From Pigoraptor vietnamica (lineage: Eukaryota > Opisthokonta > Filasterea), in the NCBI GenBank assembly GCA_943704525.1, contig CALSCQ010002033.1, positions 1 to 47,937 of the forward strand: a DNA stretch of 47,937 bases, written 5' to 3'. Positions 43,335 to 46,300 of this stretch are shown here, one piece after another. Both the position numbers and the translations under genes were made by a program. The notes under the pieces were generated by a model. That model saw only the letters and a program-made list of their open reading frames with translations. It was not told the origin of the DNA and searched no databases. Every line of letters begins with the position of its first letter. Within the stretch, counting starts at the first letter, position 1.

Positions 43335-46300
43335 ATGGCGGCGCAACGACTTGCTGCGTGGACTGTCGTCGCCCTCGCAGCACTTTCCGCCTACTGTATA
43401 TCAAATGTGAGTTGATGTATGATTACGGGTGCGCGCACACGTGCACACATAGACACACGTGCTATCATACCCAAAACTTTGCAAAAACCCAAAGTCATTT
43501 GCGCTCACTTTGCGTTGTGTCCAGGCACGCGCGGATGGCACCATCACTGTGTACTTTAAGAGCGTGACGAACGAGAATGGGCACACCAAGACGGGCGGCT
43601 GCTGTGACAACCTCTGCTACCTCGGTGTGTGGCCGTGCATCTGCACTGGCATCGACCAGTGTGACACATACGTGAAAATGTGCCTCAACTACGACCGCAA
43701 GGTGAGGGACTGTACCAATTGAGGCGTTGTCGTGCGTGCATTGCGGCGCATCCTTACACGAGCGACTGTGTACGCGCAGAACACGAGGTGTTACGACCCA
43801 GACCAGGGTCTGTTTTCGTCAAATCAATACCTGTTCACGAGCAAAGTTCTTGGGGGCAACACGTTCGACCTGTCGGATGACGACAACATATTTTCCGCCC
43901 AGCGAACGTTCTTTGGTTCTATTAAGGTGAGCCTGGAGTTCAAGTATATTGACATTGTCAGCTCAACACGCACGCACGCACGCACAAGCAGACATAGACA
44001 CAGATACAAACACACACGCGCACACAGGTAGAGAACGTGAGCGAGATGGGCGAGAAACACACATATGCATACACCCACACCCACATACACAACACACACA
44101 TACACCCACACAACACACACACACACACACAAATGCAAAGGGTCTCCTTTCTTACAAATCCGTTTCCGGGTGCAGGATATCACCTACGACGTGAGCATCG
44201 AACTGTTCGACAGCGATATCGGCCTGGGTGCGGGTGACTCGATCACGGACACTGTGCGCAGCATAAGTTCGATGTCCAATACGAACGGCAAAATCGTCTA
44301 CAGCACGCAAGAGAACACGTGGACGTCCTTTGTGTGGGGTACGTGGGTTTGCACGCACGCGCACGCATGCGCTCAGCACAACCTCCAAGGGCTGACCATG
44401 TTCGACCCCTTCGCGATGTCCCGCAGGCTACAGCGTCAAGTGCAGCACCAACTATTACGGCGACGATTGCTCCGTTTATTGCTCCAGCTTCACTTGCGGC
44501 AACGGCGGAAAGTGCAACGCCAACACGGGCCTGTGCGACTGCGTCGGCAACTTCTCGTCTGCGGTGAAGTGCAACGACTGCAACGCCGGCTTCTACGGCA
44601 GCATGTGCAGTGGTAAGTGAGCAAAGGCGCTGCTCCGTTTGCCCAGTAAGCAAGTTGGCGTACACACGAACACACACGACGCTCGCGCAAGCACGAGCTG
44701 TACACACATGCATTGATGAGAATCAAAAAATCACACACGTACATACACACATGCACGCCACAGGCCAACACACAGACACTAGTGCCCACGCAACACGTCG
44801 CACAAGTGGTCATGAAGCCTGTTCTGTACCGTCCCTGCCACATAGCGGGCACATACTCATCCACTTCATTCTCCAGCGTGCAAGTGCCAGAACGGCAAGT
44901 GCTCCAGCGGCATAAGCGGCAACGGCAATTGCACCAGTTGCAACACTGGCAATTACTTTGGCTCGCAGTGCATGGGTGAGTGCGGGCGATGTGTGGGTAG
45001 TTTGCACACTGCCTACCTTGCCGCTCATCTATTACAACCCACTCATATACCCGTCCTTTTTTATGTACGCCATTGTCCCCTTGCCCTTCTTCTCCGTCTA
45101 CGAATGATGGCGATGCCTCTACAGCTGTTACAGCGGCGCATAGCACGTTGCACGGCACACTCTGATTCATATTTTGCCAGTTCATCCTATCCATTAGGCT
45201 GCACATTGTGTGGCACACTCTGACTTGAAGGTGTCGCGCTTTTATGTTATCCAGCCTGCACCTGTGTGAATGGAACGTGCAAGACGGGCCTCTCCGGCGA
45301 CGGCAAGTGCTCGGCCTGTGCCGCCGGATATTATGGACCGAACTGCGACAAAGGTGAGTCGGATTGTTTTGGGTTCGCCCGCTATTCTTAGAATATGTAT
45401 GTGTGCGGCTTTCATATGTGTGCGGCTTTGATTCGATGACTACTTGCTGACTTGGAAAAAGTTTCGGATTCAACTACTGCTCCCGCTGACTGCAAAAAAA
45501 AAAAAAAAAAAAAAAAAAAAAATATCGCAGCGTGCCTCTGTAAGAACGGTGTCTGTAACGGCGGCGTTTCGCCAGCGGCTGACGGGATGTGCGTCGGCAA
45601 CTGTACCAAGGGTTTCTACGGGACATACTGCGAAAAGGGTGAGTGTGTGCGCGCGTGCGTGTGTGTGTGCATGCATGCTTGTGTGCGATTATACTGTCAA
45701 GTACACTGATACTCACCTCAATTATCCAGTGTGCACGTGCGTCAAGGGAGCGTGCGACAGGACAACGGGCCAGTGCGTAACCAACTCGTGCGAGCCACGC
45801 TATTACGGGCCTAACTGTGACCAGAGTGGGTCGAAGTGATCTGCCTCGGTGCTGTGTGTGTTGTGTGTTGGGAAGGGGGGGGGGGGGGGGGGGGGGGGGG
45901 GTCGTGCGTGTGTGCGTGTGTGTGTTGTGTGTGTGTGTGTGTGTGCATTGATTACTAACTGATGCGTCAATCGCTCCCAGAGTGTGCATCGCCGTCGTGC
46001 GTTTGCAACGACAACACAGGCGGCACTGGCGAATGGTGTGTAGCAAATCTTGTTGCCCTCCCTTGCGTTCACTCCATTAACACACACACACACACACACA
46101 CACACACACACACACACACACACACACACACACACACACACACACACACACACACACACACACACACACACACACACACACACAGTGCGTCACTGCTGAC
46201 GGGTTCTTGTTGACGGGTTCTTGTTTCTATTTCTTCCGCAGCCTCACCTGCCAGTCCCCGTACCAGAACTACGACCCCAAGACGGGGTGTCGTACTGCCT

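What the first reader, a model, noticed from the sequence alone, without database searches (positions are those of the whole stretch)
43335..44612. Notch-ligand-like MNNL + DSL start in what looks like a unicellular flagellate
Seen: signal peptide, then GGCCDN, CDTYVKMCLNYD, LGGNTFDL, ITYDVSIELFDSD and, after splicing, YSVKCSTNYYGDDCSVYC, followed by EGF-like modules. Known: in animal Delta/Jagged proteins the MNNL (C2-like) domain has a GxCC turn, CDTYFKVCL, GGNTF and a YTLxVEAWD-type strand in this order, then a DSL domain opening VxCxxxYYGxxCxxxC, then EGF repeats. Inference: this is a homologue of the receptor-binding head of Notch ligands. The second half of the DSL domain diverges, so it may be an ancestral or degenerate form. 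Compact genes, tiny introns and the rest of the gene set argue against an animal genome.
Basis: partly seen in the sequence, partly recalled or inferred. Interest (0 to 1): 0.87.

Follow-up and report, generated by a model that had tools for sequence, protein, structure and literature searches.

The report
Delta-headed receptor kinase in a protist
A genome that looks like that of a single-celled relative of animals carries what is most likely a receptor tyrosine kinase whose outer tip is related to the part of animal Delta/Jagged proteins that grips Notch, which bears on how that signalling pair came about.

Summary
The spliced head (exons 1-5) matches Pfam MNNL (31.6 bits, E 1.4e-7) and runs into a DSL-like module and EGF modules. 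A profile of six such heads from this genome matches fly Delta at 8.8e-15 over MNNL and DSL; its ten best PDB matches are all Notch ligands; a column-permuted control finds none. The gene is cut by the contig end. Its paralogue on C117 (84% identical, 13 consecutive exons of equal length) ends in a transmembrane segment and tyrosine kinase (5.1e-81), and two divergent heads lie upstream of kinases of the same kind. So the window gene is most likely a Delta-headed receptor tyrosine kinase; this step is inference. The most Delta-like head, C874, has a tyrosine-rich tail and no kinase motif nearby. The window's DSL-like module fails the Pfam DSL test and has an extra cysteine pair. A Notch-like protein without EGF repeats, presenilin and CSL are also encoded.

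The parts
43335..43406 (+). exon 1: start codon and signal-peptide-like leader (MAAQRLAAWTVVALAALSAYCISN)
   Evidence: ATG, hydrophobic run by eye, donor GTGAGT
43525..43701 (+). exon 2: first part of MNNL (GGCCDN, CDTYVKMCLNYD)
   Evidence: Pfam MNNL 26.6 bits on this exon alone; spliced head 31.6 bits
43780..43926 (+). exon 3: MNNL, GGNTF region
   Evidence: spliced head against MNNL profile positions 2-110 of 157
44176..44338 (+). exon 4: MNNL C-terminal strands (YDVSIELFDSD ... SFVWG)
   Evidence: aligned with the other heads; an exon starts just before this strand in all six gene models
44427..44612 (+). exon 5: DSL-like module with eight cysteines (C-YYG-C loop plus full EGF cysteine set) and start of next module
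   Evidence: profile of six such modules: best match fly Delta DSL, 2.9e-7; Pfam DSL not reported
44877..44975 (+). EGF-type module exon, phase 1-1
   Evidence: same length in C117
45255..45353 (+). EGF-type module exon, phase 1-1
45531..45638 (+). EGF-type module exon, phase 1-1
45730..45825 (+). EGF-type module exon, phase 1-1
45981..46035 (+). EGF-type module, first half exon (phase 1-2)
46242..46333 (+). EGF-type module, second half exon (phase 2-1)
46490..46594 (+). EGF-type module exon, phase 1-1
46737..46826 (+). EGF-type module exon, phase 1-1
46987..47094 (+). EGF-type module exon, phase 1-1
47219..47326 (+). EGF-type module exon, phase 1-1
47487..47594 (+). EGF-type module exon, phase 1-1
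47763..47870 (+). last EGF-type exon in the window; in the C117 paralogue one more EGF exon and then an EGF-TM-kinase exon follow
   Evidence: contig ends at 47937

Best explanation
The window gene encodes a single-pass receptor tyrosine kinase of a unicellular holozoan: signal peptide, MNNL (C2-like) domain, an eight-cysteine DSL-like module, about a dozen EGF-type modules, then (beyond the contig end) a transmembrane segment and a cytoplasmic tyrosine kinase. The MNNL-DSL tip is homologous to the Notch-binding tip of Delta/Jagged but here is the sensing end of a kinase receptor. Likely working: the tip on its EGF stalk binds something on a surface (another cell, prey, matrix or lipid); clustering brings kinase domains together for trans-phosphorylation, and tail tyrosines recruit SH2 proteins. 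Shown: head homology, exon structure, constraint, kinase in the paralogue. Inferred: that the window copy has the kinase too. Assumed from general knowledge of RTKs and of MNNL: surface binding and clustering; the ligand is unknown.
For: Head: Pfam MNNL 1.4e-7 for the window head, 1.6e-9 for the C117 head. Six-head profile: the 10 best of 19 PDB matches are Notch ligands, fly Delta 8.8e-15 over positions 3-197 of 197. MNNL part alone of four heads (C830, C117, C1222, C354): four matches up to E 10, Jagged-2 4.4e-5 and 5.4e-5, Jagged-1 0.05 and 0.54, over about the first 40 of 158 positions. Permuted control: 2 matches, best 0.12, no ligand. Chassis: C117 protein of 1144 aa, 84.4% identical to the window protein over window residues 8-640, 13 consecutive exon lengths equal, TM at about 737-757, GEGEFGEV, HRDLAARN, PVKWMAPE, PK_Tyr_Ser-Thr 5.1e-81. 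C1222 and C354 have, downstream on the same strand with EGF-type exons between, TM-kinase frames whose kinases are 81-83% identical to that of C117; these two genes were not spliced through. Heads C1222/C354 are only 32-33% identical to the window head, so heads change faster than kinases, as one would expect of sensors.
Against: The kinase exon of the window gene itself is not in the contig. One related head (C874) has no kinase motif within C874:7000-26000, while C354 shows all five motifs in the same scan (a kinase broken up by introns could escape), so the head does seem to occur without a kinase. The window head alone is not significant against PDB sequences (best ligand E 0.52). Pfam MNNL is reported for 2 of 6 heads only and not in scans of whole proteins. 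No structure was obtained; no binding or expression data.
Confidence: 0.8

Rival explanations
1. The window gene is a Delta-like membrane ligand without kinase, acting on a Notch-like receptor of the same organism.
For: C874 shows that such a form probably exists here: Delta-like head (fly Delta 2e-10), EGF-type exons, TM, tyrosine-rich tail, no kinase motif. A Notch-like protein (12 LNR, HD-like region, TM, ankyrin repeats; Notch-2 NRR 1.7e-9), presenilin exons and a CSL BTD exon are present.
Against: The closest relative found for the window gene, C117, has the kinase and equal exon lengths in 13 consecutive exons. The Notch-like protein has no EGF family among its Pfam matches, and Delta grips Notch through EGF repeats (recalled).
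Confidence: 0.1
2. The similarity is convergence of cysteine-rich EGF-like sequence; there is no true MNNL or DSL.
For: The profile dominated by array modules matches SCARF1 and TIE2 EGF modules better than Jagged-1 DSL; Pfam DSL is not reported for the window; the window head alone is not significant against PDB.
Against: The MNNL part without EGF or DSL still matches only Jagged chains (4 of 4); full-length collinear matches to Delta, Jagged-1 and Serrate; permuted columns lose it; the modules right behind the MNNL, taken alone, have fly Delta DSL as best match, 2.9e-7, with SCARF1 next at 8.3e-7.
Confidence: 0.05
3. The contig is animal (contamination or an animal genome).
For: MNNL, DSL, Notch-like, integrin beta and cadherin genes are all found in animals.
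Against: The relatives of the gene lie on at least five other contigs of the same 32.5 Mb assembly; the window has 59.8% GC; kinase-bearing MNNL heads and a Notch-like protein without EGF fit no animal I know (recalled); no Wnt match (weak: the tool warns that this does not show absence).
Confidence: 0.04

Closest known systems
Animal Delta/Jagged (DSL ligands)
   Same: Signal peptide, MNNL, YYG-type DSL-like module, EGF modules in this order; sequence similarity over the whole head in profile form
   Different: Kinase instead of a short tail (by paralogy); DSL-like module has eight cysteines instead of six; EGF modules match Pfam EGF_STAB1-2
Choanoflagellate Delta-like protein of S. dolichothecata (m.249548)
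   Same: MNNL and DSL in one non-animal protein (PMC6040629, passages seen)
   Different: Reported from a partly assembled contig without TM; no kinase mentioned in the passages seen
Capsaspora 'Delta-like' receptor tyrosine kinase
   Same: DSL domains and EGF repeats on an RTK (PMC4810162, passages seen, citing a paper that is not held)
   Different: Two DSL domains; no MNNL mentioned, and the review places the invention of MNNL on the animal stem
Ministeria vibrans PTK BAM76481.1
   Same: Tyrosine kinase proposed by BLAST as possible ancestor of DLL, JAG and NOTCH (PMC11594159, section 7 part 1 and passages)
   Different: The main text does not contain MNNL or DSL; the similarity there may rest on EGF repeats (my inference)
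Jagged-1 exon-6 unit (J1ex6)
   Same: An EGF with an extra disulphide loop at its N-terminal side, four disulphides (PMC2725086, passages seen); the eight cysteines here come in a fitting order
   Different: In Jagged-1 it lies at EGF1-2, not at the DSL position; disulphides here are inferred only

Membership tests
MNNL domain (Pfam PF07657) | profile score over the curated cut-off of 22.5 bits | tested here: met
   window head 31.6 bits, C117 head 37.9 bits; exon 2 alone 26.6. Not listed for the whole 640-aa protein
MNNL domain (Pfam PF07657) | C2-like beta sandwich | not testable with these tools
DSL domain (Pfam PF01414) | profile score over the cut-off of 24.2 bits | tested here: not met
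   not reported for the window head at E up to 10; C874 19.0 bits, below; C583 35.3 bits, above; C1222 and C354 not reported at E up to 1
DSL domain (Pfam PF01414) | six cysteines with YYG between the first two | tested here: inconclusive
   YYG and six fitting positions are there, plus one more cysteine pair; all eight are invariant in 28 of 28 modules aligned (23 of the 29 C583 rows were used) and in 6 of 6 post-MNNL modules
Delta/Jagged ligand, criterion of PMC6040629 (MNNL and DSL in one protein) | both domains recognised | tested here: not met
   MNNL yes, DSL by Pfam no; related by profile
Receptor tyrosine kinase | TM plus tyrosine kinase domain | tested here: inconclusive
   met in C117; kinase by Pfam in C354 and by reading in C1222; the window gene is cut by the contig end
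Notch receptor (for C1027, not the window gene) | EGF + LNR + TM + ANK in this order | tested here: not met
   LNR 2.1e-101, ankyrin 9.3e-43, TM by hydropathy at about 696-716, HD region similar to Notch-2 NRR (1.7e-9); no EGF family among the 9 listed; NOD 11.8 bits, below cut-off 20

The most novel reading that the evidence does not exclude
Before or beside animals, the Notch-ligand tip was a sensor module of receptor tyrosine kinases, and the DSL domain is what remains of an eight-cysteine EGF-type unit behind the MNNL after loss of one disulphide. Delta would then have arisen from such receptors, or from a kinase-less sibling like C874, and met a Notch core (LNR-HD-TM-ankyrin) that still lacked EGF repeats.
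Probability: 0.3. Interest if true: 0.93.

Novelty: new variant of a known kind. Interest (0 to 1): 0.84.

Why it matters
[quoted passage not shown] another asks whether DSL and the Jagged-1 exon-6 unit share an ancestor, with loss of one disulphide in DSL, and finds no strong evidence in the data of its time (PMC2725086, passages); a third proposes from BLAST that a protist tyrosine kinase gave rise to DLL, JAG and NOTCH (PMC11594159). This genome offers concrete genes to test all three: MNNL heads on kinases, an MNNL-type head without kinase, a module at the DSL position that has the extra cysteine pair, and a Notch core without EGF.

Tried and rejected
Considered and dropped: (1) Convergence of EGF-like sequence: made unlikely by the MNNL-only profile and the permuted control, though the repeat-type modules do resemble SCARF1/TIE2 EGF. 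(2) The DSL match on C1125 (25.1 bits): a long EGF-repeat frame, not counted as a family member. (3) The C583 array as proof of canonical DSL: its first module passes Pfam DSL, but its units have eight cysteines too. (4) Naming the organism by 18S: ten requests, no answer. (5) Folding the DSL exon with 27 relatives: not finished at polls 85, 88, 93, 96, 99, 102, 105, 108, 111, 114, 115, 119, 122, 124, 125, 127, 129, 132, 134, 136, 138. (6) A second search with the C874 head found no further head.

Weak points of the models: exon borders were wrong (frame lost from exon 5) and were corrected; the C117 model failed twice. In C354 one splice junction (7833/7713) was chosen to keep the frame and is uncertain; first exons of C1222 and C354 were not found; C1222, C354 and C874 were not spliced from head to tail; the 3' end of the C583 gene was not resolved, and its frames hold runs of N.

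Full report
What is there. The + strand from 43335 to the contig end carries a gene of at least 17 exons (640 codons so far) with GT..AG borders; from exon 5 on nearly every exon is one cysteine-rich module with phase 1 on both sides, the exception being one module split over two exons. The head alone (248 aa) matches Pfam MNNL at 31.6 bits, E 1.4e-7, profile positions 2-110 of 157. In a search of the whole 32.5 Mb assembly with PF07657 there are two places over the cut-off: this one and C117. The C117 head scores 37.9 bits. When the whole 640-aa window protein is scanned, MNNL is not listed at E up to 10, nor at E up to 0.001 for the whole C117 protein; I put this down to composition filtering, untested.

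A family of heads. Searching the assembly with the window head led to five further loci with the same plan, an MNNL-like stretch followed by a YYG-type module: C117, C1222, C354, C874 and C583; searching with the C874 head found no more. Of the six heads Pfam MNNL is reported for 2; Pfam DSL passes for C583 (35.3 bits), is below cut-off for C874 (19.0), and is not reported for the other four. The C874 head alone finds fly Delta (2e-10), DLL1 (4.7e-8) and Jagged-1 (3.1e-7) among all PDB sequences, collinear over the later part of MNNL and the DSL. A profile of the six heads finds fly Delta at 8.8e-15, Jagged-1 1.8e-13, Delta-like protein 4xl1 5.5e-13, DLL1 2.6e-12, DLL4 (5mvx) 2.5e-11, Serrate 1.6e-7; the ten best of 19 matches are Notch ligands, eight of them over nearly the full profile and the two Jagged-2 chains over positions 104-197. 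To exclude an effect of EGF-like cysteines I used the MNNL part only, of the four heads other than C874 and C583: four matches up to E 10, all Jagged (Jagged-2 4.4e-5 and 5.4e-5, Jagged-1 0.05 and 0.54), over about the first 40 of 158 positions. A profile of the same six heads with columns permuted gave two matches, best E 0.12, neither a ligand. Against this: the window head by itself finds a Delta-like protein only at E 0.52, behind a mastigoneme protein at 0.05.

The chassis. C117 can be spliced into a complete protein of 1144 aa in 18 exons. It is 84.4% identical to the window protein over window residues 8-640. From the DSL-like exon to the window's last exon 13 consecutive exon lengths are equal; dN/dS is 0.14 over 633 codons, 0.08 in the head, and dS is 0.68, so both genes are constrained and are paralogues rather than alleles. 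After the last exon that the window has, C117 continues with one more EGF exon and then an exon with EGF, a transmembrane segment (about 737-757) and a tyrosine kinase: PK_Tyr_Ser-Thr 5.1e-81, HRDLAARN, PVKWMAPE, tail motifs YAEL and NPVY. C1222 and C354 also have a TM-kinase frame downstream of the head on the same strand, with EGF-type exons between (C354 kinase 2.8e-83); these genes were not spliced through. Their kinases are 81-83% identical to that of C117, whereas their heads are only 32-33% identical to the window head. C874 has, behind EGF-type exons, a TM segment and a tail with many tyrosine motifs (YMNP, YENI, YDRI, YDTI); no kinase motif was found in C874:7000-26000, while the same scan found all five motifs in C354. 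So the window gene is most likely the N-terminal 640 residues of a receptor tyrosine kinase; this last step is inference by paralogy, because contig C830 ends before the gene does.

The DSL-like module. In the window it reads C-x8-C-x3-C-x4-C-x5-C-x6-C-x-C-x9-C. Eight cysteines are invariant in 28 of 28 aligned modules: five post-MNNL exons and 23 of the 29 C583 rows (six rows were left out), and in 6 of 6 modules that directly follow an MNNL. DSL disulphides as I recall them (1-2, 3-4, 5-6) can be read as this pattern minus one EGF pair. A study of Jagged-1 exon 6 describes such a unit (EGF plus N-terminal disulphide loop, four disulphides), asks whether DSL and this unit come from one ancestor with loss of one disulphide in DSL, expects in that case a primitive precursor in which one of the two is missing, and finds no strong evidence (PMC2725086, passages). 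The modules here have the cysteines expected of the state before such a loss, at the DSL position. The profile of the six post-MNNL modules has fly Delta DSL as best match (2.9e-7), then SCARF1 (8.3e-7) and DLL1 (1.9e-6); the profile dominated by the array has SCARF1 and TIE2 EGF modules first and Jagged-1 (2vj2) eighth of 42 rows. So the module sits between DSL and other EGF-type modules, and formal DSL membership of the window module is not met.

Notch side. PF00066 gives 13 LNR places: 10 on C1027, 2 on C1171, 1 on C854. C1027 gives a gene model of 1239 aa: leader, 12 LNR, a region similar to the Notch heterodimerisation domain, TM, ankyrin repeats, Ser/Pro-rich tail; LNR 2.1e-101, ankyrin 9.3e-43, NOD 11.8 bits (below cut-off 20), no EGF family; last LNR plus HD finds Notch-2 NRR at 1.7e-9 and Notch-1 at 7.9e-4. 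Partial Notch-like architectures in choanoflagellates are in print, among them a Monosiga gene with EGF, LNR, TM and ANK (PMC2770060, passage) and Mylnosiga Notch (PMC6040629). Presenilin exons on C92 and a CSL BTD exon on C653 are present. A Notch core therefore exists here without the EGF repeats to which Delta binds in animals (recalled), which argues against a ready-made Delta-Notch pair.

Which organism. Not named by any search; the 18S request failed ten times. The assembly has integrin beta matches over cut-off on three contigs (C661, C928, C829), cadherin repeats on two contigs (47 rows, a lower bound), and no Wnt match (the tool warns that this is no proof of absence). Among the choanoflagellates of PMC6040629 integrin beta was seen in a single species (passage); Pigoraptor, a filasterean, has integrins and cadherins (PMC7147346, passages). 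I read this as a unicellular holozoan, more likely filasterean-like than choanoflagellate, at perhaps 0.6.

Novelty. MNNL plus DSL outside animals is in print (S. dolichothecata, PMC6040629), and so are DSL domains on a Capsaspora RTK (PMC4810162, citing a paper not held). An MNNL on a kinase I did not find: searches in an open-licence library; of the ten papers holding both 'MNNL' and 'tyrosine kinase' I saw passages of two (PMC6040629, PMC4810162), the other eight only as listed titles and starts of abstracts, on cancer, bone or thymus. The kinome paper PMC8662651 holds neither MNNL nor DSL in its main text. Subscription papers could not be searched, and the surveys of filasterean kinases that I know of are among them (recalled). 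Hence: new variant of a known kind.

Noticed in passing
G000:C1027:11035-6479 (-), locus L050: Notch-like protein: leader, 12 LNR, HD-like region, TM, ankyrin repeats, no EGF repeats. A finding in its own right.
   Followed up: partly
G000:C583:23490-32610 (-), loci L041/L045: Huge gene with an MNNL-like head followed by a near-tandem array of some 30 DSL/EGF units in long open frames, with assembly gaps (N) inside; 31 of the 32 DSL matches listed for the genome lie here.
   Followed up: partly
G000:C117:4560-5804 (+), L001:1-1245: Gene just upstream of the C117 paralogue ends in EGF-type modules, TM and a tyrosine-rich tail (VYEDL, IYVNP, EYLDI), like C874; its 5' part was not looked at.
   Followed up: no
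G000:C874:60-4547 (-): Cadherin repeats on the same contig as the most Delta-like gene, opposite strand.
   Followed up: no
window 33949-37140 (-): Protein kinase frames (Pkinase in both, Pkinase_C in the first), perhaps one gene with an AGC-type C-terminal extension.
   Followed up: no
window 11155-12510 (-), 28612-30897 (+), 15506-15961 (-), 25136-26008 (-), 3501-5802 (+): Other neighbours: folliculin-interacting protein middle domain, AAA_11/AAA_12 helicase, syntaxin-like domain, KRI1-like, ankyrin repeats.
   Followed up: no
window about 46080-46184, 43097-43123, 45875-45901: Long (CA)n/(TG)n and poly-G runs in introns and upstream of the gene.
   Followed up: no
G000:C1125:24796-29613 (+), L044: Long EGF-repeat frame of 1606 aa that gives a marginal DSL match (25.1 bits).
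   Followed up: partly
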